A stretch of 64,000 bases of DNA from Tethya wilhelma. Its lineage: Eukaryota; Porifera; Demospongiae; Tethyida; Tethyidae. Under the pieces are notes generated by a model. That model ran no database searches. It had not been told where the DNA came from and was given only the letters and a program-made list of their open reading frames with translations. This document shows, piece by piece, positions 1,515 through 59,869 of the stretch (position 1 is the first letter of the stretch; each line of letters starts with the position of its first letter). The DNA is taken from the NCBI GenBank assembly GCA_964030475.1, contig CAXIPT010000006.1, forward strand, positions 529,231-593,230. The letters are read 5' to 3'. The translations under genes were made by a program, and so were the position numbers.

Positions 1515-3878
1515 TTAATAACAATGATTGGTGGGAGCACTGGGAGGAGTTTCTTTCACTCGTACATAGACTCTACTACCACTTCTTCTCCTCCTTCCTT
1601 GGTATCGTTTACGACACACACAAACACACACCACAAAGAGAAAACACACACCAACTAACACCATCCCTCCACTGACACTGAAACCTGTGTGCTTCACCCA
1701 CACCTTGTAGGGTTCAAAGTTCAAATTCAAGTGCCCTAACTTTTGAGTACCATTCTTGTCACCTTGAGACTTGATATCAGCTATGATACAGCTCTTTGAA
1801 AATGAGAAAGAAAAAATGAATGATAGAGTATTTTCAAGTGTATACTTGTTCCATACGGTAGGGGTTAGGTTGATATTGAGGATGGGTCCTTTTACAGTGA
1901 GAGAAGAGTTAAAATTTAAGCCCTGTGAATCGTTGAATGATGGATTGGTGTAAATCAGTAAGACGTAATAGTTCCGCCCACCAGATGGTATTGTTTGATT
2001 GAAGATTTCACACTTATCGTTCTTGAAATTGAAAGTCATTTTGCTGAACAATTTTTTAGTTACTTCTTGCTTACTAATACTAGAATTTTGAAAAAGTTTG
2101 AGATTGTTCAGTAGGAAAATGCTAATTGAAGTAGAAGAATATGTATCAGTGCATATGGTAAGATTGAATGAAGTGTGTGGATAGAGATACAACACTGTTT
2201 CATTAAGATCAGATAAACCTGTGATGCTTTTGTTAAAAATAACTTGATTTTGCTCGAAGGGAAGGTTACTGCAGCTCTCGTCAAATTGATACAGGTCTAT
2301 TTCGCGTGTGTCATTGTCTGGTCGATCCACAACCAATCTTTTGGTGAAAAAGTGGCTCACTTCTGATAAAATGACCACAGAGTTGTCATAGTAATCTCGA
2401 GTGTGGTTTCCATTGACAACATAGTTGGAGATGGTGGTCAAGGTCGCAAAGGTAATCACAACCAGTAGTCCCACAATTATGGCGAACACGATAAGAGTGA
2501 TAGCACACATTGTACTTTTCCTACAACATACTTTTGTTTCAGGAGGTCTACCACTTGGATTGGACGCTGGAACTGAATTTCGACGACCAATTCCTACAGA
2601 GGAATAAAATGGTCATCAAATCAAGGTAGAATAATTATTATGATAATTGACAAAGAAATACAAGGACAGATCTGAAAAGAAATTCTATTTTCTCTGACAA
2701 CCACACCCTAACTTCAACATACTTCGTTCTTTTTGTACTGTAGTATTTTCAGTTGTGGGATTTGTATTGTTTGAAGTGACACTTCCTGAAAGGAGAGGAA
2801 ACACAAACATGCATATATATATATAAAAAAATAAAAATATTAATCATGTAGTATTTCCCTCCCCCCAATTCATACTTACCCTCTATTGAACTAGACACTC
2901 TGCTTGCGTAGCTGCTGGTAGGAGTACTGGTATTTCTGGCTGTAAACTTGAGTGGATAATCATTGGGGGATTCTGTGTTTTCGGTCTTCCAGTTAGGGGG
3001 TGCATCTGTAACCATGCAATGACTATGCGTAAGTTTATTTCATCAATGCAAACAAACCAGAATCATCTGTCTGCTCTGACATCAAATCAGATATATCTCT
3101 TACCTATACATGAAATACTTATTAATCTACCAGCTTCCCTGCCTATGGATAGTTTTTCCCTCGGATAAGTAAAATGAAACCAGGATATAACAATTAACTT
3201 ACTTTGAAATGCTAATTCAATATCATCGTTGATCTTTTCCATGTCCATTTGATGTAGATTGTTCTCCAGGCGATACTGCTGAATAATTCGAAAGCAATCG
3301 ATTTCGTGACCTGCCACTAATCCTTTAGCAAGAGCCATCTGATCTTCATCAGTGATGAGTCCCTTCTCAAGAAGTCTGCAGATTAATGATACAACCGTCT
3401 TGAAAAGTTTTGAGGTCATGGTGGTTCCAGCAATGGTGCACAAGCGTGTGCATTGACTGATAACATTTTTCCTATCATTGGAATGAACATCACGCATTCT
3501 AATGCACACTTTGACCAGAGCTTGATGAAAACGGAAATTTCTCGATATTTTCGGACTGCTTGGATCGAACGGTCTATAATCATTCAATCCATCAGGTAGT
3601 CTTGTAATAGCAGCATTCACAGTACCTCTATTCAGCAATTCCAGAGCGTAAATAAACCGTGCCAACAGCTCTTCTTCACCATAAATGGCCTTCTTTCTCA
3701 AAGCACAGTACAGTCCAGATGGTTCGCGTACGCCATCTCGATCGTCTTGGTCCAGTTCAGTTCTCACTCCCAGTAACATGATTTCAATGCAAGAACTAGG
3801 AACTGCATCGTCAACGTGAGCATGAATCCATTCGAGCACTGTATCGGCATATCTTTCGCCTTCACTATCAGAATCCAT
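1515..3878 (-). CDS. Tandem-DED two-pass membrane glycoprotein
   Basis: Four exons: 3878-3203, 3005-2880, 2785-2723, 2590-1515; all introns are phase 1 and the model gives 646 aa in frame. Residues 1-225 form the tandem DED-like module. Residues 226-290 are a Ser/Thr/Asn-rich linker. A membrane segment at about 316-340 (ITLIVFAIIVGLLVVITFAT) is followed by an ectodomain of about 255 residues with many N-glycosylation sequons, then a second membrane segment (MVLVGVCFLFVVCVCVC) and a short basic tail. With the DED in the cytosol, both ends are cytosolic. The ectodomain resembles genes I, K and O (NSVVILSEVS near the start, ITGLSDL, NLTICTD). A likely role is a receptor or scaffold linking an extracellular module to DED signalling; no ligand can be inferred. 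Promoter layout matches that of the gene on its left. Confidence 0.7.
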
Positions 3879-3884
3879 GATACA

Positions 3885-14964: not shown

Positions 14965-16458
14965 TTAGTGATGTCGGATTGTTTTTTTCTTCCAAACGAC
15001 AAGGCATATCCATAAAGCAGCAACAATTAAAGTGTAAAAAACAAGAAGAAAAACACCGAGAGCTAAACTGATTATAAAATCAGAGTCAGTCACAACAAAC
15101 CTTTGTGGTTCAGCTCGGGTATTCAAACCAATATAGGTTGCATTGGTTCCATCCTCTGGAACAGGACTATAGGCTAATATGCACCCATGCCTCTGGTTGA
15201 CTTCAAACACACAAGTTTGATTTGGATCAAAGTGACTAATTTCACAAGACTGATATAGACCAGTCTCATTGTCATAGTCTTGGATATCGTAGTAAAGATA
15301 GTCTGCTGAATATTCATAGTCAACAGTGAATTCCCCTTTAACACTCACCAATACAACAAATTCATAGCCATAGAAAAAGCTAAAACCTTCATAGATATTT
15401 TCTTCACCAACAGTTGTATTTTGAATAAAAAGGTCAAAAAAGGAGCAATTGAGTGGATTGATACCATGGCCAGCAATCTCAATGAAGCAGTTGAAGTCAG
15501 CAACATCAGATAAAACAAACAAAACCAATTTTGAATCTGCTTCAGTTGAATTCTTTACAATAGTTACATTCACAGTATAATTATTTGAAAGAGATTGAGT
15601 AAAATAGGCAAACTTTTTAATCACAAAGACTTCACCATCACTTAATGCAACATTGCTGGCTCCAAACGTTTCAGATTTAGTTGTAATAGGCACACAATCA
15701 TTTTGATTTTTTGTGAAGAGCAGGCTTAAATTTGTGTTAAGATCAAAGGAAGAGTTCACTTGTACTGACAGGGATTTATACGTTTGCGTATCAAAGTTAT
15801 CAGGAAGATCATCAATGTCAACAAAGTAAAGAGGAACAGTATCGCCTTGGAAGACACCTTGGTTTGACACAGCAGTAGTTGGGGATGGAAGGTATCCAAA
15901 AATATTTAGAAATATTATTACTAATGCTGCAATCACGATGACAGTAACAATTGTCAAAATAACTGAGCAGGAATAGAAGCAGATGTTTTTCCAATTCTTG
16001 GAATTAGTAACTGGAAAAAAAAAATTCAAACCTTGTAAAGTAACAATTGTAGACAAAATGATTAATGCTATGGTGATAATAATAATTTAAATCAGCTATA
16101 TTAATACAGAGCAAAGATTAAATATTATAGGTCAACATTAGCCTCTTATCCAGCTCTCCCCCTTTGACCTTTTACTCACGAAAATCAAGGAGAGAGCCTG
16201 GGTATGAGGCTAGGTCAACATCAAACTATACTATAATTATACCCCCACAATCATGTTTTTTTGCACGAGGCTCAATCCATTATCATTTGTGGCATCTATA
16301 GAATTTACTACTACACACAATGCAAAGGTCATGTATTCATGATTATACACAATGACTAAGTCTGCGTAATATTCTTGTGAAGCCTATTGACAATGAGATA
16401 AGATTGTATATTTCTGGTTAATCATTGTCGCAATGTCATGCTTCATGGCAGGCATGCA

Positions 16459-16551
<93 letters not shown>

Positions 16552-16564
16552 NNNNNNNNNNNNN

Positions 16565-16626
<62 letters not shown>

Positions 16627-17320
16627 CACACACACACACACACACATGCACACACACACACACACACATCATGTGACACAGCTGACTTTGATTATAGTAA
16701 GTATTATAATACTGCCGTTTATATCCAGTAAAAGTAATTCATTATAGAAATTTACTAATAATTATTAACAATCGATACAAAATCAAACAATAACAATAAT
16801 AATAATAATAATATTATTATCATCTTGCCCATGACAATGTCATACTGAATATGAACTTCAGTGCACTAACCTGGTTGCCGATTAGCTGGCTGAAGCAGTG
16901 GGGCTCTTTCTGAAGCAGATATACGAGTAGCAAGCCGACTTTTGCCACCCTTCTCAGACTGTTTGATGACAGCTGTTGAAGGCAGCTTCGTAGTCACAGT
17001 GTTAGTGGGGACTGTTGCTGCATTAAATTTGCCATGTGCATGTACATGTGTTTTATACTATGATCATCTATAGCAGTACAGCTCATGTACAGTTATTGAA
17101 AGTATTCTAATTATAATAATATGCAAGTCTCTCTCTTAGCTACAGGGTCCACTTAATTTTTATTTAGATTTGAAATTCACTATTATAATAGCTCACGATC
17201 AATGCTGTTGGTGGTATTAATGTTGGTATTCCTCTCCTCTTGTATGGAAATGTTTCCTGCATTCTGTACATTCCTGCCAGGGAGCGAGGTGTCTGCTTCA
17301 ATATTGGATGATTCGGCCAT
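14965..17320 (-). CDS. Two-pass membrane glycoprotein, array gene A
   Basis: Three exons, 17320-17197, 17017-16871 and 16010-14965, with phase-1 introns, give 438 aa. The cytosolic N-terminus begins MAESSN and contains the acidic dileucine signal ERAPLL in exon 2, which closely resembles the DERAPLI lysosomal sorting signal of LIMP-2. Exon 3 opens with a Cys-containing juxtamembrane piece, then a membrane segment (VILTIVTVIVIAALVIIFLN), then the ectodomain starting QGVFQGDTVPLYF, the array hallmark. Later hallmarks are VIKKFAYFT, DYDNETGLYQSC...CVFEV and GCILAYSPVP. A second membrane segment ends the protein with a short basic tail. Both ends are predicted cytosolic. No enzymatic motif is seen. 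Confidence 0.8.
16139..16215. mobile_element. Foldback repeat of the TAGCCTCG family, copy 1
   Basis: A 77-bp unit begins TTAGCCTCTTATCCAGCTCT and ends AGAGCCTGGGTATGAGGCTA. The ends are near reverse complements, and similar units occur at 45536 and 50358. It lies in intron 2 of gene A. Confidence 0.55.
16459..16668. repeat. (CA)n microsatellite with assembly gap
   Basis: A CA tract of about 200 bp is broken by 13 Ns at 16552-16564. Long open frames here in several phases are repeat artefacts. Confidence 0.95.
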
Positions 17321-17675
17321 CACTTCAAGAATTTAAGGATAAAACTTAAAGCATAGCAGTCAGTGCTTCAGTTAAAATTTGATTGTGATGGGTTTTTTGC
17401 AAACAAAATATATAATACCCCCAAAATTATATTACCTTACTATAGCCTCTCCTCTTAATAACTATTGTTAATAACAATAATGAAGGTGATTCCCCTGGGG
17501 AATTCCCTTAGATCATACCATGTGCCTTGCACATGCACACCATGAATCCATACAATGTCATGAATCTCATTTTATTTTATTAAAAAATTTCAGAAGGCAT
17601 AAAATTAATCATAGGGCCATAATAATAACACATTAGGCATACATCATGCATGACGATGATGATGACGTTGACCAC

Positions 17676-19035
17676 CTAACGACGTACAATAAGGTATAAA
17701 GTACAACATAAACTAAAGATTAGTAAAATAAACAAAGTCACACTAAAAGTCAGAAAAATTATTGATCTTGTTGTCCATCTTTCAGTTGCAGGCTCAGCAG
17801 TAACATACAGTTCAATGTATGTTGGTGGTGACTGCTCTGGTGCTGGGCTTGAGGCAAACAAGCATCCTTGCTTATGAACTTGAAAGTCACATGTTTGATC
17901 ATAGGGTGGTTGACCAAATTTAAAGGTACATTTCTGATAAAATTCATCATAGTTGCTGATGTTATATGAGAAAATTTTAGATAAATATTCAATGTCAACC
18001 ATTACTTCAAATTTTCCATTTATATCAGTATTAGATTTGAATTCACCATCACTGTCAATACCCAACCCAAAAGAATAATAGCCTGGATAAAATGGAAATA
18101 GATTAGTATTATCAAATACAATCGTTTGAGAAGTTGTTGTGTTGACGGTGGTATTGACTTTCGTAACTTCGAAATCACAAAAAGCCTTGTCCTCTGTTCT
18201 GAATTCATCAAAGTCCAAAATGCACAAATACAAACTATCATTTGTTGACAATGAACTCTCAATGATAGTGAAATTAAAATAGATTATTGCTTGGTACATT
18301 AAATAGACAAATTCTTCAAACATGAAAAAATTATGATCAGCACTTAAACGGATATGACTGCTGTTAAAATTTTCAATAACATTATCATATGGTGGCTCAC
18401 AGTCAATAGCACTCTTAACATAAACAAAGTTGACGTAAGACACTTCAGAATCCGTCATGAGATTAATACTGGGACGCATATATGGTTGTATAGACACAGA
18501 TTGGTATCCATCTACGTTCTCATGAGGCAATTCAGAAGACTCAGTAAAATAAAGAGGAATTAAATGACCATCTTGGTAGACTATTTGATTAGATGACATG
18601 GGTGGTGGTTTATCCAGAACCGGAAGGTAAAAAAAAAGGAATACCAATACAACAGTACACATTGCCAACACCATTGTTACAGTAGCAGCTAAATATATTT
18701 TGCTCCCAGTCTGTCTGCTACATAAACAGCAGGCGTTTGCTGCAATGGGAGTAAAACAAAAATAATAATAAATAAATAAGATATTAAAATTATTATTATA
18801 CAGGGGTTGTAATCAAGATTTAAAATTAATTGTATAATATTATACCACAACAGATAATAATAATTTATTATGTTTTAAGATAATTATAGCAATTGACATT
18901 TGCTGAGAGCCTCCAAGTTAATTGATATTGTGACAAATTGCATAGTTTATTTCAAGCTAAATTATGGTTTACATGCATATCACACACACACACACATGCA
19001 CACACACACACACACATGCACACACACACACGCAC

Positions 19036-19121
<86 letters not shown>

Positions 19122-19631
19122 AAAACACACATATTTGTCTAACATTCACATTGAGGTGATAGGAATTTGCCAATTACCTTGAACTTGTTGAGGATCATCA
19201 TTTATTCCCACACGATCAACTCTGGCTTGACGACGATTATCAAGCAGTGGAGTATTCTCTCCAGGTTGTGATGTAAACTCCCGATTGTCATTTTCAACAA
19301 CTTCTTCATCAACGTCATTGATAACAGCTATTTGTGTGTCTATACAATTACAAGTATTCAGCATGTAAAATTATAGAGTGTGTGTAATTAAAGCAACGTA
19401 CTAAACCCAGTGTATAATTGTGTGCCATTAATTTCAATCTACAGACTCACTATTTTCCTTGGTGTTGGTGATATTTTTCTCTCTTTTTTGGGCAGGAATT
19501 GCGTTTGGCAAGTGTTCAATATCCAAAAAAGTGCTTTTCTCCTGATCTCCTAGGCCTGCTTCACCAGCTATAGGGGCATCATGAAGGGAGTCTTCTGAAC
19601 CACTGGGTAAGTTGGAAGCTGACTCAGCCAT
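17676..19631 (-). CDS. Two-pass membrane glycoprotein, array gene B
   Basis: Exons 19631-19451, 19339-19178 and 18739-17676 give 468 aa, all introns phase 1. The N-terminus [14 protein letters not shown] matches gene G. Exon 2 is acidic and carries GENTPLL, an acidic dileucine motif, followed by a basic stretch. Exon 3 has a Cys-rich juxtamembrane piece ([11 protein letters not shown]), a membrane segment, the ectodomain hallmark [15 protein letters not shown], two conserved cysteines around [13 protein letters not shown]...CDFQV, and [16 protein letters not shown]-terminal membrane segment ends LIVRR. Roughly eight sequons lie in the ectodomain. The intron between exons 2 and 3 holds a (CA)n tract. 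Its neighbours are all same-strand paralogues. Confidence 0.8.
18980..19117. repeat. (CA)n microsatellite in gene B intron
   Basis: About 65 CA units with occasional TG/CG interruptions. Confidence 0.95.
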
Positions 19632-19989
19632 GTTCAAATACTTAACTTTTGCAAAGTTGTGTACACAGCACTTTTCTCTCTACTATCTCTAGATCAATGC
19701 ACCAGCAAACAGCTATATATGACAATATATAGCTGCCCCACCCTTTTTTTTTTACAACATTAAATTAATATTATTCATTGTCATCAATATACAATTTTAG
19801 TGGTATTAGTTCATGATTTTAATTGTGTATGAGATCCTAAACATATATTAATTCGGTGCTATCATTAAAATTAATTTTATCGACCCACTTTCAAACTTTT
19901 TTCATAAACTTTAAAAATTAATATACACAAGAATTTTTAGTACTGCAATTTAAAGGACATCGAATTACACAAACATTTAATTATTCTAG

Positions 19990-21245
19990 TAGGTTAGCAG
20001 TGTACAAATAGGTAGACAGTAACAGGCATGTACATAATATTGTAAGTAAGTAAGTAAAGAAAAATGCACTCAAAACGGGAAAAAATTGGATGTTGTTGTG
20101 AATCTCTTAGACTCAGTGCTGACACGTAATTCAACATAGGTCGGTTGTGATGACTTGGGCACAGGACTAGAGGCAAAAATACAGCCACGTCTGTTACGAA
20201 TTTTAAAATGACAGGTCTGGTCAGAAAATGGTTGACGAATTGTACATGTCTGATTGTAATTGCTGATGTTATTGAAAAAAACTCAGATGAAAATTCATAG
20301 CTAACTGTAACTCTTTCTTCACCATGCATAGGTTCTCAAGAGGAAGAAAAAATAGCCATATCCAACATGATGGAGTTAATTCTTTTGAAATTGTTGCATG
20401 GAGAGCTGGATTAACTTCTACTGCTTCTACTATCACTGGCAATCTTGCTCATCATTCATGAAGCACTTCAAGTCAGCACAGCTGCTAAAAATATACAAAC
20501 TCATAAGATATTATTATAGTGTGAGTCAGTCTCAACAACAACACTCACTTGATTGCTACAAGGCGAATTCTTTGATCACCAAGTCATGACCATGACTTAG
20601 AGAGCCTGTGCCATTGAAATGTTCCGAGTTGAAATTGTTTATCAGTGGCTCACAAGAATTAGCCCAATCTATGAAAAAAAAACTTGGACAAATGAATCAA
20701 TAGCAACCACTTGTACCGACACAGACTAGTAATCTTCCATGTGGATCCGGATCTCAGGTAAACGATATTGGTCTTGCCAGCCTAAATAAAGAAAAATCAT
20801 GCCACCATCTTGGTAGACTTTTTGATCAGTTGAAACGATACAACAAGGAAGGTATCCAGCAAAGAAAAGGTAACCAAACATACTTGTATTGATCATGAAT
20901 ATTGCAGGTATAGTTATGACGATAAACACACATTTGGTCACACTTTGGGTGTTGCTACAAATGCTTTGGTTACAGGCTCTTTTGCTGGAGCTTGAGCCTG
21001 CTATATAACAATTATTATTTGAAATTCAACATGTTTGATCAAGCTGGACTGATGCATCCATGGATTACCTACATACCTTGCAAGTAATTATGATTCACTG
21101 GTATCATGTTATCTTAATTGGTCATCATTCTGAGATTGATCGTTTAAAAGTAGTGGAGTTTCTATTTCTCTATCTGTATCGAATTCAAGCTGTTGTTGTT
21201 CATTGTCACTGGCTTCATCAGAATTGACAGTGACTGACTCAGAGT
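19990..21245 (-). pseudogene. Array gene C, decayed copy of gene D
   Basis: The ectodomain exon (about 21000-19990) is highly similar in DNA to that of gene D (21807-22816). It keeps the start TKCVFIVITIPAIF and YQDGG but is broken by stops and frame changes near 20725, around 20400-20600 and at about 20330, and it lacks a piece of the central ectodomain. Upstream, a linker exon at about 21245-21105 still has an acceptor and an ETPLL motif but runs into a TAA before any donor. Another short frame at 21286-21468 has no clear relation. No intact product can be made. Confidence 0.8.
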
Positions 21246-21806
21246 CTGTACATAATAAATTATTATGATGACCATCCAATATAATCTATGATATAATCAA
21301 TTTCTCATAGAAATACACAGACTGAGTGGAGTTCATCAAGCAGCCTGACTCACTATGGTTTGTCACGGTTTCCTCTGTAGGAATTCTTGGTATTAAATGG
21401 TCCACACCGGCGTCCAGAGCCAAGATAGTGCTTTCACGTATCTCAATCTCAGGCTTATTGATAGGCACAAAGAGAGTCTTCTGCTGGCTGGTTCGATATG
21501 TTCAACGTGTAAATAGCTAAGTGCAGAGTCTGAGCTAAGTGCATGTGCAAGTAAACACTGGCAAATAAAACCACATGACATGGAAACACCACCCCCTCCC
21601 TACACCCTCGCCTCCATATGGCAATGGTCGTCAACAATGAATACAAGAAGAAGCATTCATTGGCTTAGTGTTGTTCTGGAATATAAAAGAATATTTTTAA
21701 TAACAAAAGATACTATAGAAAAACATCATAATTATTGTACTACATGTAGTAGAATAATAATTAAGGATCAATCATCATAATAAGACAATTATATAGTCAC
21801 ACATTG

Positions 21807-30318: not shown

Positions 30319-30329
30319 GTTCAACTTGA

Positions 30330-39382: not shown

Positions 39383-39513
39383 CTATGAATTTAGTTATTA
39401 TCGAACCACAAACGGTGGTCTATATAATACCAGTATTGACACACACAAACAACAGAAAAACAAACACTTTTATTGACAGCTCTCATGTTGTGTCCACAGT
39501 TGGAATGTTGAGT

Positions 39514-39984
39514 TTAAGCAGAGTTTTCCATAAAATACTTCAACTTGGTGTTCCCGCCACCTTCAAGGTCAATGGGCTTGCTTCGAAAGTGTTTTACAAG
39601 CTTCTCTAAACTCTTGTACTCTTTGGCATTTCTCAAGTTAGCAATGGCATACTTGCCATTGGGTCTTTTCTCCACTTCAACGTGATGGGTCTTGCCTTGA
39701 TACATAACTGATATGGCGTAGACAGGGTCACGTCTTGCCGAAACAGCGTCACTTTCTCGGACTAGGAAAGTTCCGTCAAACTGAGCAGATTTTGACAAGC
39801 GATCTTCTGCAATGTTTCTGTTCATTCTGCCTTGGAACCAAGGTGCTTTGTGCATCATCTCTTCCGTCTCTTGAGCGATTTCTGACTCATGAGGACGCTC
39901 TTCTGTCACTACCAGCCAGTCTTGGTATTCTGCTGTACCGTATTCAACGGGTTGTCTCGATCTGTACGATCCACGCGTGGCCAT
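39514..39984 (-). CDS. SH2-only adaptor protein 2
   Basis: A single-exon 156-aa paralogue of the gene at 38808. The SH2 domain spans about 49-142: PWFQGRMNRNIAEDRL, GTFLVRES with Arg 76, ISVMYQGKTHHVEV, GKYAIANL and LEKLVKHFRSK. I chose ATG 39984 (MATRGSYRS), not 40038, because it aligns with the start of paralogue 1. The added 18 residues would be hydrophobic (KLTIYQLLIIASV) and could act as a membrane anchor if used. The N-terminal region has two tyrosines (VEYGTAEYQDW). Confidence 0.88.
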   Translation of the reverse strand: MATRGSYRSRQPVEYGTAEYQDWLVVTEERPHESEIAQETEEMMHKAPWFQGRMNRNIAEDRLSKSAQFDGTFLVRESDAVSARRDPVYAISVMYQGKTHHVEVEKRPNGKYAIANLRNAKEYKSLEKLVKHFRSKPIDLEGGGNTKLKYFMENSA

Positions 39985-40107
39985 TGTGACACTAGCGATG
40001 ATTAGCAACTGATAAATGGTCAACTTAAGCTTGTTCACAATTTTGTCCAGATATAAGCTGATAACATAACAAGCTAGTTGCTGAGCAAGCTAGATTTGCT
40101 GACTAGC

Positions 40108-40177
40108 TCACGTGAGAAGGTAGGAAACCTTTATGACGTAAATTTCCGCAAGTGACGTCATTCGTTACGCATGCGTA
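40108..40177 (-). promoter_or_regulatory. E-box, perfect CRE and palindrome upstream of SH2 gene 2
   Basis: TCACGTGAG at 40108-40116, a perfect cAMP-response element TGACGTCA at 40153-40160, and ACGCATGCGTA just beyond. The order matches SH2 gene 1. Confidence 0.55.
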
Positions 40178-40283
40178 GATGAATGTAATTATTGAATATT
40201 GATAAGCACACAATTACAAGCAGGATAAGAAAAGAATAGTTTCCTGCACACACTTAAACACACAAAGCGTCACAAAAATGTCA

Positions 40284-41300
40284 TTACCTAACAATGTACT
40301 GACAGCCATACTTGAGTAGCACAACACTGAAAGTCAGAATGAGCAGTGCAACGCCCACAGCCAGGCAACAAAGACCGGGCAAGTTCCAAATATTATGTTC
40401 CACATTTACCCTCAAAGAGACATAATCTAGTTCAGGATCATTGTCCATAATGGCACTGTAGGCAAAAAGACATCCTTTCCTCCCATCTAGGCTGAAAGAG
40501 CACGATTTTCCTCTAGAGGCAATGTCACAAGGTGGACTATCAACTGTATCGTAGTCTGTCAAATTGAAGTAGTGAAAATACACGCTCTGTGTGTAGTTCA
40601 CAGTGACCATTTTATCCGTCAGTAGAACGACAAAGTAGTAACTTGGTACTATGGGTGCGAATTGAATCATTTCCTTTTCGGTGATTGATTGAGAAAAGGC
40701 ATACCCGCAAGCTGTGGTGTTGATACTACCTGTCGAAGAGTTGAAACATTTGTACGAATCAGCATTGTCTAGAATGTAAGCTGTGATCTTCTCGCTATTT
40801 TCGCCCGTGCTGAATTCGATTCTATCGGCTCTTGTTAGATACTGATACTTGAGTGTTGTGTGCAGCTTTTCCACAGTTTTATTCTGTTCATTCTGTTCGA
40901 TTGTATCATTGTGATCGGGCAGTGGAAAACATGCTCTATCACCTTCGTTGAAAATAAACGAAACTGTCTGATTTTCTTTCAAATTTGACTTCTCGCTATC
41001 CACCTCGACGTTGACGCTCAAGTACCAATAAGTATTGACGCTACGGGGGAGCTCCTGCCTATTAGCGAGGAAGAGGGGTATGGTGTCCCCCTGTCGTACC
41101 CCCTGCCTGGTGCTGGCCGAGGGATCGGGGAGATAGTGAAGGACGGCAAAGGCCGTGATGAGACCTGCCACGAAGATGAAGATGATTGTCAACCAAGTGG
41201 CGGTGCAGATTCGACTGGCTTTGTTTGGAGGAGGTTTCTTGTACTCTGCAAAATTGTGTGTATATGTATGTATGTGGATGAAAGATTATGTTTGTGTTAT

Positions 41301-43352: not shown

Positions 43353-44051
43353 TCATTGAGTTTCAAAAAAGCTCAGTCCGACAGAAGCAACTAAAATAAG
43401 AGTTGGATAGAAAATTTCATACAAGAATGTGTCAACAGTACCTTGCTCTTGTGTAGGTGGTGGTGGTTGTGGTTCTGTTGGTGGGATCTTTTTGATGGCT
43501 TCCTCGACCATATTTGAAATATCTTTTCGCCCAATATCGCTCAACCATTTCGATAGCAGCTCTAATGACTCTTTCTCACGATCTAGCGACAACGTATCTT
43601 CATGAAGCAGTCTCTGAAACAACTTGACAGAGGTCTTGATCCTTTCTGAAGCAACTCCTAACTTTTCTTCAGGAATACGATTCGTTAATCTCCTAAGGTA
43701 GTCACCATTTCCTAAATGATCCGAAACATTAACTAGCAACTCAGTGAAATAGAGTTTAGGAATACGTTCGCTTTCAGGAGCTGGCAGAAAGCTCTCCAAC
43801 ATGGATACGTACTTCGGACTCACACCAGCTGATTTCAGAAGCCTGGTGAAGAGTGCGATGGTCCTTTCATTGTGTACAGATTTTATCTCACGGTGAATTT
43901 CAGGTATTTTCTTTGAGCTATCTTCAACCATTCCATATGGTACAACTGCTGCGGCCAAGAGACGCACCCTCTCTACTTGATTGTCAGTAGAAAAGCGGTC
44001 GATTTGAGACAGCACTTGTGGTAGCTCGGGCTCAGAGTCTCCGGTAGACAT
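43353..44051 (-). CDS. Tandem-DED protein N1 with hydrophobic C-terminus
   Basis: 232 aa from ATG 44051. Residues 5-90 form a first DED-like bundle (LPQVLSQIDRFSTDNQVERV start). Residues 103-190 form a second, clearer DED: YFTELLVNVSDHLGN, LRRLTNRIPEEKLG, VKLFQRLLHEDTLS, LELLSKWLSDIGRKDISNMV. This follows the usual six-helix DED order. A proline linker (PTEPQPPPPTQEQG) precedes a hydrophobic tail of about 20 residues (FLYEIFYPTLILVASVGLSF) that could anchor the protein in a membrane. Alternatively the exon may end at CAAG/GTACTG (phase 1, near 43442) and splice to an unseen exon. No catalytic part is present, so it is likely an adaptor or regulator. Confidence 0.75.
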   Translation of the reverse strand: MSTGDSEPELPQVLSQIDRFSTDNQVERVRLLAAAVVPYGMVEDSSKKIPEIHREIKSVHNERTIALFTRLLKSAGVSPKYVSMLESFLPAPESERIPKLYFTELLVNVSDHLGNGDYLRRLTNRIPEEKLGVASERIKTSVKLFQRLLHEDTLSLDREKESLELLSKWLSDIGRKDISNMVEEAIKKIPPTEPQPPPPTQEQGTVDTFLYEIFYPTLILVASVGLSFFETQ

Positions 44052-44316: not shown

Positions 44317-45804
44317 TTACTCGAGGCTTTCATAACCACACCTAGACCTGTGCCATCCATATTTTTTTACTACACACACACAAAAAACACCAACTACTAA
44401 AACGACACCACACACAAACACACACAGGGCAACAATCATAGCAGTTGTCACAACATTCAATCTCATCGGTCGAAGTTCAAGATGTGTTGTCATTGGATCG
44501 TCAGCTACAGGCGGCTCCACGAAAGCTATGACATAATCTCCATGGTGAACATGAAGGACACAAGAAACAGGGTCATAAACTCCTTGGGGACATTCTTTAA
44601 CCGCTTCATCATAATTGACCGGATTGAGATAAAACTGTTCGATATTGTATTGATATTTGTACACAATGTTTCCAGGTGTTTCGGACGTTAAGAAATAGTA
44701 GCCTGTTTTGTTCACGATCCACGAGCTTAGCGACCAACAACGTGTGTTATTGTTGGTACCAAATTCAAGAACCTTGTGGTACATGGCACGGTCTGTGTCG
44801 TAAAGTCGGTAGCTTGTAAGGTCGTCAAAAATGTAGAAGGTTCCACTTAAGTCTTCATTGCTGTCAGTTACACTTGCAAGGCATATTGTGTAGTTGATAA
44901 CAGAGCTGCTTAGCAAGTAGATATAGTCTAAAAGTCCTGTCACTTGTTCAGGATTGGCTTGGTACTGTAGTGGTTGTTTGTCTACAAGCTCTCGTTTGTG
45001 AGGATTCAGAGATGAAGCTACGTAGAGACGAGAAATCTTGGTAAAGTCGTCTTCTTCTAGATGCTCAGAAATACTTACGCTTGTCACAAATGACCCCGTG
45101 ACCTTTCCGATAATGACCGTATCGTTGGAGTGTGCGAGAACAGTTTGACTCTTAAGTTGGTGGGCATTAATAAGATAGACAATAAAGTCTCCAACGCCTA
45201 CTAGGAAAAAAAACATTAAAAGAGCCAATCCAGACAGGTAGCAAATACGCTCAGATTTTCTACAATTGGACAAACATCTCGATTTCTTTCTTTGACTACT
45301 TTCAGTTGTCCTGCCAGAGGTTGATGTTGATATTGGAGGGGAAGTTTTTTCAATAGTTTCCCGATTTATAGATCCATACATGTTGGCTCGACTCGAGTTA
45401 TCTTCTGAATTTTGTAAGGGAGATTTGTAGCCGTTTTTTGGGAGGGGATGATCTCTTTCATCTGTATGACATTGTATACAAAAAGATCAGTTTTGTGGCC
45501 CATGCAGCACTCAAATTTAGTAATCAAACCTCAGTGTAGCCTCGTGCCCTGGCCCCTCCATTGCAAATATTTCCTTCAAAAATAAGCTAGGAAATTTGCA
45601 AGGGAGGAGCCTGGGAATGAGGCTGCTCATACTAAACCTCGTAAACCGTGCTTAGCAATATAAAGCACGCGGGGAGGCCCTGATTTATGAGGCTAACTCA
45701 TACCTACCATCTCCCAAACCAGAAAAGTGTGTTGGGTCAGTTTGGCTGTCGGTCTTGTGGGAGTGTGCTGTAGAATCCTGAGCTGGGGAACCTACATGTA
45801 TTGT

Positions 45805-46691: not shown

Positions 46692-47935
46692 AAAGGCATA
46701 TGGTGTAGTTGATAGCAGAGCCCATTAGCAAGTAGATGTAGTCTAAAAGACCTGTAAACTGTTCAGGATTGGCTTGGTACTGTAGCGGTTGGGAGTCGAG
46801 CTCTCGTTTGTGAAGTTTCAGAGATGAAGCTACGAAGAGATGTGAAATCTGGGTGTAGTCATCTTCTTCTAGATGTTCAGAAACACTTACGCTTTTCACA
46901 AATGACCCCGTGACCTTTCCGATAATAACTGTATCATTGGCATGTGCAAGAACAGTTTAACTCTTAAGTTGGTGGGCATTAAAAAGATAGAGAGCAAGGT
47001 CTCCAATGCCTGCTAGAAGGGCTACTGAGAGTAAAAGAAGCAATCCTAGAGTACAACAAATACGCTCAGATGTGCTACAATTAGAAAAGCATCAGATTCT
47101 AGAAATGCTCGATTTGCTCTTTTTTACATCTGATTCAGTCTTGTCAGAATCTGGATTAGGTCGTAGAACAGTAGTTTCTGTTGGAGTTTGGTCATCAATG
47201 CGCCAGTTAATGGATGTATTGTGGACTTTAACCGTCACTTGGTTGACTTGATCAGTGACTGAGGGTGGAGGAATTTGAAGGTGAGGTGTGGTTTCTTCTT
47301 GGGTCTTCTTTGCAGTACCTCAAGTTCCATTCAGCGGCTACTCCATCTCTATCGGTCATCTGCACAATGACACATGAAAAAGGTTAAAGGTCACAGTGGC
47401 ACACGTACATGCCCAAAGTTTTTATATGCAGTACAAAAAGGTCACGTACAAATCGCTTTTATATGCACCAGAGCTTGAACAGTGTCAGTATATCAAGAGG
47501 ATACCTAGCCCCATAGCTATAGCTCATTTAGTGTGAATTATATGTACATTTAGTCTTACTGCTATATTAATAATATTGTATAGCAGAGTTTATATAATAT
47601 ACAGCATCTGGATTTTGCCATAACTACACCATTGACTAGCTTTAGTTTACAAGCTGAAGCAGTAGCCACAGCGATCATAATAACATGTGTACCATAATCA
47701 GTATGTACATGTACGCTGTCCCTCCAGTATCATCTTACCTCTATGTCCATGCTGATCTTGGTAGTCTTGGACCACTCTTGCCACCTCAATCAGCTGAATC
47801 TCGTTCAGCACTTTCACCAGTAAAGTGACGTCACCTGGATACACCTTCGAGCTTCTCAGCTTGATAAAGACATCTAAATACTGAGGTCTTCTGGTGTTAC
47901 GATATTGTCAGGACAAATCGTACCGGTATCGGATT
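46692..47935 (-). pseudogene. Gene L, truncated broken copy of gene O
   Basis: 47360-46692 copies the start of the O membrane/ectodomain exon but is cut off in mid-ectodomain. It has CAA-to-TAA at the ectodomain start (about 46959-46961), and an insertion near 47090. A second part, 47749-47935, copies the 3' end of the O DED exon with an inserted segment and frame change. The interval matching O 58152-59104, which holds its linker exons, is absent. The copy is clearly non-functional as a receptor. Confidence 0.85.
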
Positions 47936-50893: not shown

Positions 50894-53014
50894 TAGCCTC
50901 AGCAGCCGTCATTCTCTAGCTTGGAGAGTTGGTTGGAGCACCTGCAGTTGAGTCACCACCTCAAGATGCTCCACTCTCATGGAGTGAGCCAGGTCTTCCA
51001 GCTGTCAGGGATCACAGAAGATGTGAAGAGTACCAAGTTATTAATCTACTAAGATCATAAGACTAGTCTAACTGTGATCCACCGTACTAAGGATGAACAA
51101 CTGTACAGAGACATAGCAACACTACAGTACTATGACTGGTTGGCCAATTTCTGGCTGCTGGCTAGTCCGTTATAATGGGAGATTTGAGTCTGGCTAGCGA
51201 GACTAACAGCTGCATGGTAACTATCAGCACTGACTGTAGCCTCGTCCCCAGGCTCCTCCCTCACGAATATTTTCTTTATCAATGCATTCAGTGGCAGATT
51301 TAGGGTGGTTCCTAGGGTTCCATGGAACCCCTCTTTCAGCTGAGACCTCGCATAATAAATTAATTAACTGTGGGGACTGGAATAGTGCTAGCTAGAACCC
51401 CCCTTTCAACTTAAAAATACCAAAAGCAACTCAAAATATCACTGTATATCAGTCTTTGGTTTACGATAATATAGTTTCTCACTCTTTCTTTCTCCATTCA
51501 GGCCTTGTGGCAAAATCTAGCTGTCTGCACGCTAAAGGGGCGGGGCTTTACGAACGGAAGTGGGCGTGGCTTGGCAAAAATTTCCCGCGCGTTTCGCGCA
51601 CATTGGTTGGAACCCTTCTATTTCAAATCCTAGATCTGCCACTTTATGTAGAGATGGATTATGGTTATCATTGGGGCGAGCCTGCATGAGCGAGCCCCAT
51701 TGGAACGGTGAAACATTGAGGCAACTGTAACGGCTTTGACCAAACCGGAAATAGCAATGATGCTCAAATTATGCGAAAAATTAAACAACCTGGCCTCAGA
51801 TATATTTACGGTATTTCTATAAATTACACGCGCGCATGCAAAATCGAAGAACATTGAAAGAGCTATAGCTGGCCCGCTGGACGTGCACAGATCGATCAAG
51901 TTCTGAACAAGTCCTTTGAGCATATGTTTCATATTAGTTGCTGCTTTAGTCTAACAGTACTGGCAGTCTGCCACTCACAGTCAGCTCATCCTGACAGTAC
52001 TTCCACTCAAATCAGCTAAGCATGACAGTACTGCCACTCATAGTCAGCTCAGCCTGACAGTCCACTCACAGGTCAGCTCAGCCTAGCAGTACTGGCACTC
52101 ACAGCCTCACAGTCAGCTAAGCCTAGCTTGTTTCTTCACTCCTTCCCAGGCGAATGGGCAGCTCTGCTTGTGGCCTTGACTGAGTTGAAAATCTACTTAT
52201 AATAATTATTACTTAGGCTAGAATCATTTCAATTTTGCCTATAACAAGAGTAGGCCTAGATATAACCATGCTCTTATCTACTTTGTAATAGCATAGTCCT
52301 GTGAATGAAGATCCTTCGCTCAGGCTCGCCCAACGAATTCCATCTGACTAGTAATTATTGATCTGCATTTTTTGTGTTAATTATGTCACATACAACAAAC
52401 CACTAAGAGACATGCATATGGGACTATATAGAGTACCCTTATAGCTCACCTTTATGTGTATGTTGGTGTTGGTGTTGGTACTTTAGGACTATTCTTGCTG
52501 CATCATATAGGTGAAAATCACTTAGCACTTGTACTAGCAGCTTTACATCACCTGGATAGACTTTTGCTGCTAGGTAAAGAATTCTAAACAGTTCTTCAGG
52601 AGTGCCGATATTATCAGGATGAGTTGTCAAACAACATCTTAGATTCCTAAACTGTTCTTCATCCAATCCCATAATAACTGTCATGATCATTTCAGCAAAG
52701 GCAAATTCAGGCAGTTGTTTACATTCTTCCAACTGCTCCTTTGAACTGCCAAGTTTATCTACAACCTCAGAATTCACACCAACCATATACAGCATTGATT
52801 GAAGAATAGCAACAGCATTGGAGCTTAGGCTTGGGTACAGTTGAAGAAGCTGAAAGATGTCTGGAATACAGTAGGCCTTTTCCAAATGGATCGATCTGAG
52901 ACCAAGAAAGTAACTGATTAACTTGACCCGGCGACATTGGTCTTTGTTTGTAGCGTCCTTGAGCTCGCTAAGCAGCAGTGAAAAACTCCTTTCAGTATCA
53001 TCTGATTGAAACAT
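48639..53014 (-). CDS. Tandem-DED protein kinase M
   Basis: Exons 53014-52450, 49929-49690 and 49576-48639, both introns phase 1, 580 aa. Residues 1-188 are a tandem DED: RSFSLLLSELKDATNKDQCR, LFRILYLAAKVYPGDVKLLV and a final helix ending ARIVLKYQ. Residues 189-268 are an unstructured linker. Residues 285-555 are a kinase domain with GSGSYGCV glycine loop, AGK lysine, MEL hinge, HRDLTVQN catalytic loop, DFG metal motif and APE. All catalytic residues are present, so it should be active. It resembles tyrosine-kinase-like (TKL/RIPK-type) kinases more than receptor kinases. DED-to-kinase order differs from RIPK1, where the death domain is C-terminal. It is the closest DED match to gene O. Introns are 2.5 kb and 0.1 kb. 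A kappaB-type site lies upstream. Confidence 0.88.
50252..50288. repeat. (GA)n microsatellite in kinase M intron
   Basis: About 17 GA units; the surrounding short open frames are artefacts. Confidence 0.9.
50358..50429. mobile_element. Foldback repeat of the TAGCCTCG family, copy 3
   Basis: Begins TACTAGGCTCTCCGCC and ends GAGAGCCTGGGAACGAGGCTA; a related half-unit (GAGCTTGGGAACAAGGCTCC) lies at about 50184. The left end is shorter than in copy 2. Confidence 0.5.
50851..50891. repeat. (CA)n microsatellite in kinase M intron
   Basis: About 20 CA units. The next 150 bp include a short open stretch on the minus strand reading QLEDLAHSMRVEHLEVVTQL, possibly an exon remnant. Confidence 0.85.
51289..51644. 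mobile_element. hAT-like miniature transposon in kinase M intron
   Basis: Left end CAGTGGCAGATTTAGG and right end CCTAGATCTGCCACT are imperfect inverted repeats of the CAGTGGCGGAT-type known from hAT elements; a nested GGTTCC inverted motif is also present. The 355-bp interior has no transposase. Confidence 0.55.
51953..52125. repeat. Minisatellite of about 33-bp units
   Basis: Four to five imperfect units of the type CTGACAGTACTGCCACTCA plus CAGTCAGCTCAGC occur in a row. Confidence 0.65.
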
Positions 53015-55469: not shown

Positions 55470-57720
55470 CATAAACAGAGAAAATTCACAAATAATTGAG
55501 ACAAAAATACACAAAATAGATACAGTTTAGTCTTCATTCTTCATCAGTGTGTCTCTTCAACAGGCAAATGAGGGTTAGGGGACTGTCCTCTATCATTTAT
55601 ACCACCTGCATACATCATTACAAACAGAGAGAAAGAAAGATGAAACATTAAATCACACAATAACCAGTTGAGAGCTTCGAAACACTAACATAAACAGACC
55701 CAACAGATTCAACAACTACTTACAATCTGAGAACACTATTTTGAGGTCTCAAGAGTCTACACACTGATCAAAAAATCTCAGACACAGTGGGTCTAGTCAT
55801 TGAGTTTCAAAAAAGCTCAGCCGACGGAAGTAACTAAAATTAAGAGTTGGAGAGAAATTTCATACAAGAATATGTCAACAGTACCTTGCTCTTGTGTGGG
55901 TGGTGGTGGTTGTGGTTCTGTTTGTGGGATCTTTTTGATGGTTTCATCGACCATCTTTGAAATATCTCGTCTCCCGATATCGCTCAGCCATCTCGATAGC
56001 AGCTCTAATGACTCTTTCTCACGATCTAGCGACAACGCATCTTCATGAAGTAATCTCAGAAACAACTTGACAGAGGTCTTGATCCTTTCTGAAGCAACTC
56101 CTAATTTTTCTTCGGGTATACGATTTGTCAACCTCCTAAGGTACTCACCATTACCAAGGTGATCTGAAACAAGTACTAGCAACTCGGTGAAGTAGAGTTT
56201 GGGAATATGTTTGCTCTCTTGAGCTGGCAGAAAGCTCTCCAACTCAGATACGTACTTCGGACTCACACCAGCCGTTTTCAGAAGCCTTATCAAGAGTGGG
56301 ATGGCCGTCTCTGGGTGTCTGGACTTTATCTCGCGGTGAATTTCGGGTATTTTCTTTGAGCTATCTTCGACCATTCCATATGGTACCACTGCTGCGGCCA
56401 AGAGACGCACTCTTTCTACTTGATTTTCGGTGGAAAAGCAGTCAATTTTGGACAGTACTTTTGATAGCTCGGGCTTCTTTTCAGAGCCTCCGGTGGCCAT
56501 GTTTTGCTCACTATCAGTATTGAGGGGGATCCCCTGTATGTTAATTAACAAATACGTCACTATTGCGTCATTATCCTCGCGCGATCGCGGAAGTTACGAA
56601 CTTTCCTTTCACCATAAATGCATGGCGGCAGCTGAAAAGAAGCAAATTAGCACGTTAATTTTTTTCCCTTTCTTGAAGTAAATAAGGATAATAATAAAGT
56701 GACATAAAACAATTTTGTAAGTGAGAAAGTAAATAAAATGATCACAATAAATTTCACAGGGATTCATAACCACACCTAGACCTGTGCCATCCATATCTTT
56801 TTACTACACACGAACAAAAAACACCAACTACTAAAACGACACCACACACAAACACACACAGAGCAACAATCATAGCAGTCATCACAACACTCGATCTCAT
56901 TGGTCGAAGCTCAAGATGTGTCGTCATAGGATCGTCAGCTACAGGCGGCTCCACGAAACCTATGACATAATCTCCATGGTGAACATGAAGGACACAAGAA
57001 ACAGGGTCATAAATTCCTTGGGGACATTCTTTAACTGCTTCGTCATAATCGTCCGGATCGAGATAAAACTGTTCGATATTGTATTGATATTTGTACACAA
57101 TGTTTCCAGGCGTTTCGGACATTAAGAAATAGTAGGCTGCTTTGTTCACGATCCAAGAGCTTAGTGACCAGCAACATGTGTTATTGTTGGTACCAAATTC
57201 AAGAACCTTGTGGTACACGGCATGGTCTGTATCATAGAGTCGGTAGCTTGTTACATTGTCGAAAATGTAGAAGTTTCCACTTAAGTCTTCGTTACTATTG
57301 GTCACACTTGCGAGGCATATTGTGTAGTTGATAACAGAGCCTCTTAGCAAGTAGATGTAGTCTAAAAGTCCTGTGAACTGTTCAGGACTGGCTTGGTACT
57401 GTAGCGGTTGTTTGCCTTCGAGCTCTCGTTTGTGAAGTTTCAGAGATGAAGCTACAAAGAGATGTGAAATCTGGGTGTAATCGTCTTCTTCTAGATGTTC
57501 AGAAACACTTACGCTTTTTACAAATGACCCCGTGACCTTTCCAATAATGACTGTATTATTGGCGTGTGCAAGAACAGTTTGACTCCTAAGTTGGTGGGCA
57601 TTAAAAAGATAGAGAGCAAGGTCTCCAATGCCTGCTAGAATGGCTAAGAGTAAAAGAAGCAATCCTAAAGTAGAACAAATACGCTCAGATGTGCTACAAT
57701 TAGAAAAGCATCCAGAAATG
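55470..57720. repeat. Segmental duplication, copy 2 (genes N2 and O)
   Basis: Matches 43010-45380 over both genes and their flanks. See copy 1. Confidence 0.8.
55817..56500 (-). CDS. Tandem-DED protein N2
   Basis: 227 aa from ATG 56500 (MATGGSEKKPEL), chosen because it aligns with the N1 start; the frame is open to 56560. It has the same two DED-like bundles as N1 with about 85-90% identity, for example YFTELLVLVSDHLGNGEYL and LELLSRWLSDIGRRDISKMV. The C-terminal tail (FLYEISLQLLILVTSVG) is shorter than in N1 because of two small compensating indels and an earlier stop, so the possible membrane anchor is weaker. The CAAG/GTACTG potential phase-1 donor is kept. It lies 254 bp downstream of gene O in the same orientation, as N1 does for K. 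Confidence 0.75.
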   Translation of the reverse strand: MATGGSEKKPELSKVLSKIDCFSTENQVERVRLLAAAVVPYGMVEDSSKKIPEIHREIKSRHPETAIPLLIRLLKTAGVSPKYVSELESFLPAQESKHIPKLYFTELLVLVSDHLGNGEYLRRLTNRIPEEKLGVASERIKTSVKLFLRLLHEDALSLDREKESLELLSRWLSDIGRRDISKMVDETIKKIPQTEPQPPPPTQEQGTVDIFLYEISLQLLILVTSVG

Positions 57721-59869
57721 CTCGATTTGTTGGTCTTTACATCCAATTCAGTCTTGTTCGGGTCACGATTAGGTCCTAGAACAGTGGTTTCTGTCGAAGT
57801 TTGGTCATTGATATGGCGGTTAATGGATGTATTGTGGACTTGGTTGACTTGATCAGTGACCGAGGGTGGAGGAATTTGAAGGTGAGGTGTGGTTTCTTCT
57901 TGGGTCTTCTTTGCAGTATCATCTGTTGCTACTCCATCTCTATCATGGTCATCTGCACAATGATACATGAAAAAGGTTAAAGTCACACTGGCACACATGC
58001 CCAAAGTTTTTATATGCAGTATATATGTGTCCAAAAAGGTCACATACAAATCATTTTTATATGCACTAGAGCTTGAACAGTGTCAGTATATCAAGAGGAT
58101 ACCTAGCCCCATAACTATAGCTCATTTAGTGTGAATTATATGTACATTTAGGTATACGAGACCAGTGTATAACTTTGACTATGCACGTACCTTCGGCTAA
58201 TTTAGAAAAGTTAGCAGACATATTTGATGACAGCTGTGAATGATTAGGACTGACTCCACCTGAATGTACATGTGCATGTATAGAGATGCCTGTATCATAA
58301 ATATATAATGGCCACAAACACACCATCATATACACTTACCACTAGTACTGTCACTGCGATGATATTGGCTGCCAATGGCATGAGGCATTCTTTTCATCTG
58401 TGGGTAGACTGCTTGAGACTTTTCTATCGGGTGCTGTCCAGACTCTGTGAGACCTGTTACAGCATAATGGAATTGCAGCTTCATTAGCTACATACAAGCC
58501 AGATTTTTGGACATAAACATACATAACAAATTATAGGATAAAAATATACAGCACTGTTGTGCTTTTCTCCAACACAAATCATGCACACATAACTAAATTG
58601 CTTACAATTTGTTTGACGTGTTAGTAACTGTCCAGATTTTCCTGCATTAAAACAACAACAACCAAAATTATAACATTACATGTATATATGATAGTGAATC
58701 ATAGGTAAACAAATATTCATCTCCCATGATAATAATTGTAATACATGATGATCATGCACTACTATAGTGACTTCATTAATTGTTGACTTGTACAATGTCA
58801 TGCACGTGCAAAACACATGCACATGGCATGCTTACTACTAGAATTTTCTCAATGGCATTTTCACAGCTCATTAGCACATACCACACAGCTTGAATTAAAA
58901 TGATACAGTTTTATACAGTGGACTTCTGGATGTGGAGTACCTTGAGAAATTAAGGCTACAAAATAACTGATCTTCAAACTCCATCAGCCCATGATGTTTG
59001 AAAAGGCTATATAGGTGGGAATGAGGCCAGCAAGTATACGTATCATAATACGCTTGCTATGTCTAGAGATATGGTAGTCCATATAGTTTCCTACTGCTTT
59101 TGTATAGCAGAGTTTATATGTAACATATAGTATCTGGATTTTGCCATAACTACACCATTGACTACAATGTATTTAACTTTAGTTTACAAGCTGAAGCAGT
59201 AGCCACAGCGATCATAATAACATGCCCTGTGTACCACAATCAGTATGTACATGTACACTGTCCCTCCAGTATCATCTTACCTCTATGTCCATGCTGATCT
59301 TGGTAGTCTTGGACCATTCTTGCGGCATCAATCAGCTGAATCTCGTTCAGCACTTTCACCAGTAGAGTGATGTCACCTGGATACACCTTCTCAGCTTGAT
59401 AAAGACGTCTAAAAAGGTCTTCTGGTGTTACGATATTTGCAGGACAAATCGTACCCAAACATTTTTCACCAACAAAGAACTCTCGCAGAGCTTTAAAATG
59501 TTCATCACCCAGTCCCAGAATGACAGTCACAATCATTTCAGCAAAGGCAAACCTAGGCAGTTGCTTACATTCTTCCAACTGATCCTTTGAGCTGCCAAGC
59601 TTCTTTACCACCTCGGATTCCACACCAACCATATGGAGCAACGTTTGAAGGATAGCAACAGCTTTGGAGCCGAGGCTTGGGTGTAGTTGAAGGAGCCGAA
59701 AGATTTCTGGAATACAAACACCCCGTTTCTCTATGTCCACATCGCTCCAGTTGAGACCGAGAAAGTAGCTGATCAACTTGACCCGGCGACATTGGTCTTT
59801 ATTAGTAGCGTTCTTCAGCTCTCCAAGTAGAAGTGAGAAACTCCTGTCGGACTCAGCAGCTTGCGCCAT
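56754..59869 (-). CDS. Tandem-DED two-pass membrane glycoprotein O
   Basis: Exons 59869-59281, 58641-58606, 58453-58340, 58289-58191 and 57952-56754 join in frame to 678 aa; all introns are phase 1 and all linker exons are multiples of three. Residues 1-196 are a tandem DED (RSFSLLLGELKNATNKDQCR; DLFRRLYQAEKVYPGDITLL; ending AARMVQDYQDQ). The linker is His/Ser-rich. A membrane segment (LGLLLLLLAILAGIGDLALYLF) precedes the ectodomain (NNTVIIGKVTGSFV, PEQFTGLLDYIYLL, VINYTICLASV, VKECPQG...CVLHV) and a last membrane segment with short tail. I chose ATG 59869 because it aligns with the M start; 59938 is also in frame. The ectodomain is nearly identical to K, and the DED is close to kinase M. Two kappaB-type sites lie upstream. 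Confidence 0.85.

What the first reader, a model, noticed from the sequence alone, without database searches (positions are those of the whole stretch)
1515..59869. DED domains fused to two-pass membrane glycoproteins
Genes at 1515-3878 and 56754-59869 join a cytosolic tandem DED-like module to a membrane segment, a glycosylated ectodomain and a second membrane segment. DEDs are usually in soluble adaptors and caspases. A receptor with its own N-terminal tandem DED would bypass a separate death-domain adaptor. Gene models close in frame; the DED call rests on visual helix pattern.
Basis: partly seen in the sequence, partly recalled or inferred. Interest (0 to 1): 0.88.

Follow-up and report, generated by a model that had tools for sequence, protein, structure and literature searches.

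The report
Membrane receptors carrying caspase-8-like DED pairs
In an unnamed animal's genome, predicted genes join a pair of death effector domains, predicted to fold like those of caspase-8 in the better-tested gene, to a predicted two-pass, sugar-coated membrane receptor, which would likely let the receptor start death-domain signalling without a separate adaptor protein.

Summary

T1 is one of four tandem DED-then-membrane units; three are complete with the same four exons. Identity drops from 53-63% to 25-32% at the DED donor. DED and membrane exons look constrained (dN/dS 0.23-0.26 and 0.35-0.46). A second species has both exon types on contigs listed with the same length. The ectodomain family has no known relative.

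No transcript was available. Adaptor bypass is plausible, not shown; a FLIP-like decoy is the main rival. A single-pass DED receptor is already predicted in oysters (PMC8195603), so this is a new variant, not a new category.

The parts
59281..59869 (-). Gene O exon 1: tandem DED module, residues 1-196, ends in a phase-1 donor
58606..58641 (-). Gene O exon 2: linker
   Evidence: GT-AG, phase 1 in and out; also chosen by the splice search
58340..58453 (-). Gene O exon 3: linker (acceptor uncertain)
   Evidence: prefers an exon from 58368
58191..58259 (-). Gene O exon 4: linker (acceptor uncertain)
   Evidence: prefers an exon from 58233
56754..57952 (-). Gene O exon 5: end of linker, TM1, glycosylated ectodomain, TM2, short basic tail ending GYESL
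   Evidence: dN/dS 0.35 against the 44317 paralog; modelled as TM helix, all-beta domain, TM helix
3203..3878 (-). Gene T1 exon 1: tandem DED-like module, residues 1-225
   Evidence: second half aligns to O DED2 (E 1.4e-6, 0 of 100 shuffles) and to in-genome DEDs (0 of 60); first half marginal (1 of 60)
2880..3005 (-). Gene T1 exon 2: linker (exon starts at 3005 or 2939)
2723..2785 (-). Gene T1 exon 3: linker
1515..2593 (-). Gene T1 exon 4: TM1, ectodomain with 11 sequons, TM2, basic tail
163..820 (-). Paralog T0 exon 1: DED module; its exon 2 starts at 76 and the rest lies left of the window (down to C6:527477)
   Evidence: 60% identical to T1 over the DED exon, dN/dS 0.26
46694..47874 (-). 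Degraded O-type copy: DED2 remnant 47740-47874 and ectodomain remnant 46694-47260, the latter with stops
44317..45404 (-). Intact O-type membrane/ectodomain exon (81-84% identical to O); no intact DED exon was found directly ahead of it
52439..53014 (-). O-type tandem DED exon (69% identical to O) ahead of a protein kinase exon: likely DED-kinase gene
   Evidence: Pfam DED 3.5e-5; identity
48639..49475 (-). Protein kinase ORF downstream of the 52439 DED exon
   Evidence: Pfam Pkinase 4.9e-36
60232..62617 (-). Kinase, O-type tandem DED, kinase: DED1 shares a reading frame with one kinase and DED2 with the other
   Evidence: Kinases by Pfam; DED halves by homology to O, not by Pfam
43353..44051 (-). 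DED ORF of the same family directly behind the 44317 membrane exon; partner unknown (the next same-strand membrane exon is 40284-41192)
   Evidence: Pfam DED 1.4e-6
55817..56560 (-). DED ORF of the same family directly behind gene O; partner unknown
   Evidence: Row of A2, where 11 of 11 rows match Pfam DED at E up to 0.1; dN/dS 0.21 against 43353
14965..41192 (-). Array of further two-pass members of the ectodomain family (14965, 17676, 21807, 26053, 28462, 30330, 32852, 40284); no DED exon was found among 14965-33859
   Evidence: homologous to the O ectodomain by profile comparison (E 1.5e-8)

Best explanation
The two loci are likely single genes for two-pass receptor-like membrane glycoproteins that carry an N-terminal tandem DED predicted to lie in the cytosol, and that would seed DED assemblies with DED-caspases or DED-kinases directly when the ectodomains cluster. 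Shown by the sequence and calls: the exon order, the open phase-1 models, the tandem-DED profile of O, two hydrophobic segments, sequon enrichment between them, and tandem copies of the DED-plus-membrane unit. Predicted: the tandem-DED fold of O, the N-in/C-in topology, and the splice join. Inferred: the first DED of T1; that ligand or self-clustering brings the tandem DEDs together; that they nucleate homotypic DED stacks as caspase-8 and cFLIP do (recalled); and that these recruit effectors with DEDs of the same family, namely the kinases beside gene O and a caspase on contig C4, so that no FADD-like adaptor is needed. Whether the protein sits at the surface or in endosomes is open: two relatives without a DED carry acidic dileucine signals, and O ends in GYESL.
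For: Open phase-1 models of O and T1. Two further complete T paralogs with the same four-exon, all-phase-1 plan, and a fourth DED exon with the same donor. Identity cliff at the DED donor in 6 of 6 pairs of 4 paralogs: 53-63% exon side, 25-32% intron side, so the DED exon ends there and must be spliced onward. dN/dS 0.26 and 0.23 in T DED exons (2 of 3 pairs; in T1-Ta dS was saturated) and 0.36-0.46 in membrane exons (3 of 3 pairs); O DED against the kinase DED 0.25 and O ectodomain against 44317 0.35. O as tandem DED. A second species: ectodomain P0001 (55%) and DED P0002 (62.5% to O, 56% to the kinase DED), each on one contig with longest contig 1,576,675. Possible effectors: caspase frame 2 kb behind a same-strand O-family tandem DED and O-family DED halves in one frame with kinases. 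49 DED and 54 caspase matches, fragments included, in this genome.
Against: No transcript. All introns are phase 1, so a DED exon could in principle join other phase-1 exons. My splice search did not rebuild T0, Ta or Tb; T0 and Ta were placed by hand after T1, and of Tb only the DED exon was modelled. Tb's membrane region lacks a second hydrophobic segment in the frame read. Linkers evolve fast (T1-T0 dN/dS 0.68 and 1.11; the other pairs could not be computed). O's DED2 has LIDA where RxDL is expected, which argues against ordinary polymerisation. 9 sequons also lie in O's putative cytosolic part. The second-species pair rests on equal contig length; their distance is unknown. No topology or signal-peptide predictor was run, only hydropathy and charge.
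Confidence: 0.5

Rival explanations
1. The proteins are membrane-tethered inhibitors or decoys: a tandem DED without an enzyme would cap or sequester DED assemblies at a membrane, like cFLIP or viral FLIP.
For: Tandem DED with no catalytic domain is the FLIP make-up (recalled), and MC159 and cFLIP are among the best fold matches. The RxDL Arg is lost in O DED2, so polymer growth may stop at it.
Against: A large constrained glycosylated ectodomain and tandem copies suggest an input signal, which a plain decoy does not need (inference).
Confidence: 0.25
2. Two separate genes lie next to each other: a soluble DED protein and a two-pass glycoprotein whose translation starts in the membrane exon; the fusion is a modelling error.
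For: No transcript. In T1 an ATG stands right before TM1, and T0 has ATGs in the membrane exon ahead of TM1. Family members without a DED exist with short N-tails.
Against: The DED exon ends at a conserved donor, not at its stop. Ta has no ATG in the membrane exon ahead of TM1; its two upstream ATGs lie in the intron. Three paralogs keep two linker exons in frame at the same phase. The pair recurs four times in tandem, in O, and in part on contig C10.
Confidence: 0.15
3. The DED module is a sorting or scaffold domain, not a death or immune signal: the proteins are endolysosomal membrane proteins and the DEDs only hold them together.
For: Two relatives without a DED carry EGSPLL or ENTPLL in the modelled N-tail, and O ends in GYESL. 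PEA-15 shows a DED protein in endosomal trafficking (title and start of abstract only, PMC8494857).
Against: Close DED relatives are fused to kinases and a more distant one lies beside a caspase frame, which points to signalling.
Confidence: 0.1

Closest known systems
Caspase-8 / cFLIP / MC159 tandem DED (FADD as single DED)
   Different: Soluble adaptors, caspases or inhibitors there (recalled); here followed by a linker and a two-pass membrane protein, with no enzyme
Oyster (Crassostrea virginica) expansion of about 50 proteins: Cys-rich ectodomain, TM, DED, TRADD-N (PMC8195603, passage seen)
   Same: A DED on the cytosolic side of a predicted receptor, in a lineage-specific expansion
   Different: There the ectodomain is N-terminal with one TM and a TRADD-N follows; here a tandem DED is N-terminal, the ectodomain follows, and there are two TMs
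Amphioxus direct-connection genes such as TNFR-caspase and DED-NACHT (PMC2575513, passages seen)
   Same: Shortcut logic: receptor and downstream module on one chain
   Different: The fused part there is a caspase or an NLR core, and in the first case the receptor part is a TNFR; no TNFR domain was found here
Death receptors of the TNFR family (recalled)
   Same: Would work like them: ligand clustering to death-fold assembly
   Different: Those use a C-terminal death domain, one TM, and need FADD; here the death fold is N-terminal, there are two TMs, and it is a DED
BAP31 vDED (PMC3742741, abstract and passages seen)
   Same: Membrane protein once described as carrying a DED
   Different: Its 'DED' proved to be a coiled coil; that is why O was tested by fold and profile here

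Membership tests
Death effector domain (gene O) | Sequence-profile homology to known DEDs | tested here: met
   A2 profile: FADD 1.6e-10, cFLIP 7.5e-6, PEA-15 7.4e-5, caspase-8 8.6e-4; Pfam DED matched by 11 of 11 rows at E up to 0.1, O itself 22 bits, below the 35.9 cut-off
Death effector domain (gene O) | Six-helix death fold, in tandem | tested here: met
   Template-free prediction pLDDT 80.5, pTM 0.76; tandem-DED chains top both lists (Foldseek best E 0.008, probability 1.00). A prediction, not a solved structure
Death effector domain (gene O) | RxDL charge-triad motif (functional motif, recalled as common but not universal) | tested here: inconclusive
   O DED2 reads LIDA and 52439 reads LYDA; 5 of 11 A2 rows read RxDL or RxDI (alignment, read by eye)
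Death effector domain (gene T1, second half) | Profile homology to known DEDs | tested here: met
   To O DED2 E 1.4e-6, 0 of 100 shuffles; to 16 in-genome Pfam DED segments E 7.5e-4, 0 of 60 shuffles; Pfam hit in 1 of 5 family members, Tb 3.6e-5
Death effector domain (gene T1, first half) | Profile homology to known DEDs | tested here: inconclusive
   End-to-end alignment but E 0.045 local and 0.068 global, 1 of 60 shuffles as good; shuffles as good: 2 of 100 against O DED2, 12 of 100 against T DED2, 37 of 100 against O DED1
Death effector domain (gene T1) | Death fold | not tested
TNFR-family death receptor | TNFR cysteine-rich ectodomain | tested here: not met
   No Pfam match to TNFR in O or T1 membrane exons or in any of 11 family members
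TNFR-family death receptor | Single-pass receptor with C-terminal death domain | tested here: not met
   Two hydrophobic segments and a 19- to 32-residue tail
Oyster-type ectodomain-TM-DED-TRADD-N receptor | N-terminal ectodomain, one TM, DED after it | tested here: not met
   Order is DED, TM1, ectodomain, TM2
Two-pass ectodomain family of this genome | Homologous ectodomain between two TMs | tested here: met
   hhalign O-T E 1.5e-8 (probability 95.5), O-array 1.5e-8 (95.5), T-array 2.7e-4 (41.8)

The most novel reading that the evidence does not exclude
A class of adaptor-free death receptors: one two-pass glycoprotein scaffold has been fitted with caspase-8-type tandem DEDs, with O and T types so unlike that the fitting may have happened more than once, so that receptor clustering itself would nucleate the DED filament that recruits same-family DED-caspases and DED-kinases.
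Probability: 0.4. Interest if true: 0.8.

Novelty: new variant of a known kind. Interest (0 to 1): 0.62.

Why it matters
In vertebrates the extrinsic death pathway needs three links: a receptor death domain, FADD, and caspase-8 (recalled). A receptor with its own caspase-8-like tandem DED would show that the adaptor can be dropped, and would give a simple system to ask whether membrane clustering alone can seed a DED filament. It also adds a two-pass, likely all-beta glycoprotein family without a known relative, found here with and without DEDs in one cluster, which makes the effect of the DED testable by comparing paralogs.

Full report
Setting. The window is C6:529231-593230 of an unnamed 124.6-Mb genome in 204 contigs. 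Introns, 49 DED matches and 54 caspase matches (matches, not genes) mark it as an animal (inference); a sponge is my guess and no call shows it.

Gene models. On the minus strand, gene O runs 59869-56754 in five exons and 668 aa; gene T1 runs 3878-1515 in four exons and 647 aa. All seven introns are GT-AG and phase 1, with no internal stop. The DED donor and the membrane-exon acceptor of both genes were also chosen by a splice search fixed at the start and stop; inside the linkers it chose other acceptors, so linker residues are uncertain.

Independent support for the join. T1 is one of four tandem copies that extend left of the window. T1, T0 and Ta are complete, with the same four exons in phase 1; Tb has the DED exon with the same donor, but its membrane region is divergent and shows no second hydrophobic segment in the frame read. 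T0 and Ta were placed by hand after T1, because the splice search failed on them, and of Tb only the DED exon was modelled. At the DED donor, identity falls from 53-63% in the last 60 exon bases to 25-32% in the intron in 6 of 6 pairs, while the six donor bases are 83-100% identical. The DED reading frame beyond the donor is thus not conserved. dN/dS is 0.26 and 0.23 in the DED exon for the two pairs that can be computed (T1-Ta is saturated) and 0.36-0.46 in the membrane exon for three pairs; the linkers give 0.68 and 1.11 for T1-T0 and could not be computed for the other pairs. For O, the DED exon against the kinase-linked paralog gives 0.25 and the ectodomain against 44317 gives 0.35.

Other copies. 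Contig C10 has an O-like ectodomain exon (4e-36) with a DED2-like exon (Pfam 0.0032; 1.6e-6 to the 52439 DED) about 2 kb ahead on the same strand; no DED1 was found. Contig C1 has a T-like DED exon (33% to T0, 4e-31) followed by a hydrophobic segment and a short T-like motif, in a frame that appears broken; tblastn found no ectodomain match there. In the window, 46694-47874 is a degraded O-type copy. A protein database search with the ectodomain profile gave one relative (P0001, 55%; 7997 candidates scored), and a DED search gave two hits among 4455 candidates, one of which (P0002) is 62.5% identical to O's DED against 56% to the kinase-linked one; the other (P0003) is 27% identical to O and nearer to the DED ahead of the C4 caspase (52%). 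P0001 and P0002 are each on one contig listed as 1,576,675 bases long, so they likely lie on one contig of a second species. Their distance is unknown.

Membrane part. By hydropathy O, T1 and Ta have two segments, and T0 three windows, two of which overlap; ectodomains are 246-261 residues with 4-5 cysteines; tails are 19-32 residues and basic. Sequons in the four ectodomains number 30 against 15.9 expected, 0 of 2000 shuffles; O's cytosolic part holds nine as well. The O, T and array ectodomains are one family, the T-array link being the weakest. It has no significant Pfam or PDB match. The predicted model is TM helix, all-beta domain, TM helix with modest confidence, and no known fold stands out.

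How it likely works. The DED-bearing N-terminus is predicted cytosolic; no signal-peptide or topology program was run. The effectors for a DED assembly are at hand: O-type DED halves in one reading frame with kinases next door (60232-62617) and an O-type DED exon ahead of another kinase (48639-53014); a caspase frame on C4 2 kb behind an O-family tandem DED on the same strand. Ectodomain clustering would bring tandem DEDs together and seed the stack directly. This is inference. The loss of the RxDL Arg in O and the enzyme-free make-up keep a FLIP-like decoy alive as the main rival.

Evolution. O's DED is 69% identical to that of the neighbouring DED-kinase, while the T and O DEDs are linked only by profiles. 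At least one exchange of DED exons between receptor and kinase genes is likely; separate origins of the O and T fusions are possible, not shown.

Novelty. A predicted oyster expansion has an ectodomain, one TM, a DED and a TRADD-N (PMC8195603, passages), and amphioxus has receptor-caspase shortcuts (PMC2575513, passages). Passages were also seen of PMC4704026, PMC12909245, PMC5094078, PMC6321704 and PMC3742741. The tandem-DED-first, two-pass design did not appear in what I saw of my searches, which cover an open-access library only. I rate it a new variant of a known kind.

Noticed in passing
60232-63171: A likely gene with kinase, tandem DED and a second kinase on the minus strand; DED1 shares an ORF with the first kinase and DED2 with the second.
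   Followed up: partly
14965-41192: Array of two-pass glycoproteins of the same ectodomain family without a DED exon found in 14965-33859; two modelled N-tails carry acidic dileucine motifs (EGSPLL, ENTPLL), typical of endolysosomal sorting (recalled).
   Followed up: partly
20007-20992: Broken copy of the ectodomain family with many stops.
   Followed up: no
43353-44051 and 55817-56560: Two close DED ORFs, each directly behind an O-type membrane exon; whether they are whole genes or first exons is unknown. The 43353 ORF lies about 2 kb ahead of the 40284-41192 membrane exon on the same strand and might join it.
   Followed up: no
38808-39275 and 39514-40038: Two SH2-domain ORFs (Pfam 2.8e-16 and 8.8e-15) among the membrane protein genes, some of whose tails hold tyrosine motifs such as GYESL.
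   Followed up: partly
L023:716-3085 (C6:503716-506085, plus strand): A death-like exon with a phase-1 donor lies ahead of another T-like membrane exon with a phase-1 acceptor; the death-like domain has 59 matches in the genome (a lower bound) but no Pfam or PDB hit.
   Followed up: partly
L013:887-5007 and L011:1-7135: DEDs of the O family beside kinase and Roc-COR frames (COR-A 6.6e-12 and 2.8e-11).
   Followed up: partly
4215-5068: Plus-strand ankyrin-repeat ORF (Pfam 1.8e-31) whose modelled next exon looks like an SH3 domain by eye.
   Followed up: no
T1 against Ta, 1515-3878 and C6:527022-523758: Membrane exons are much closer (74% protein identity, dS 0.36) than DED exons (43%, saturated), as if ectodomains were homogenised by gene conversion or swapped.
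   Followed up: no
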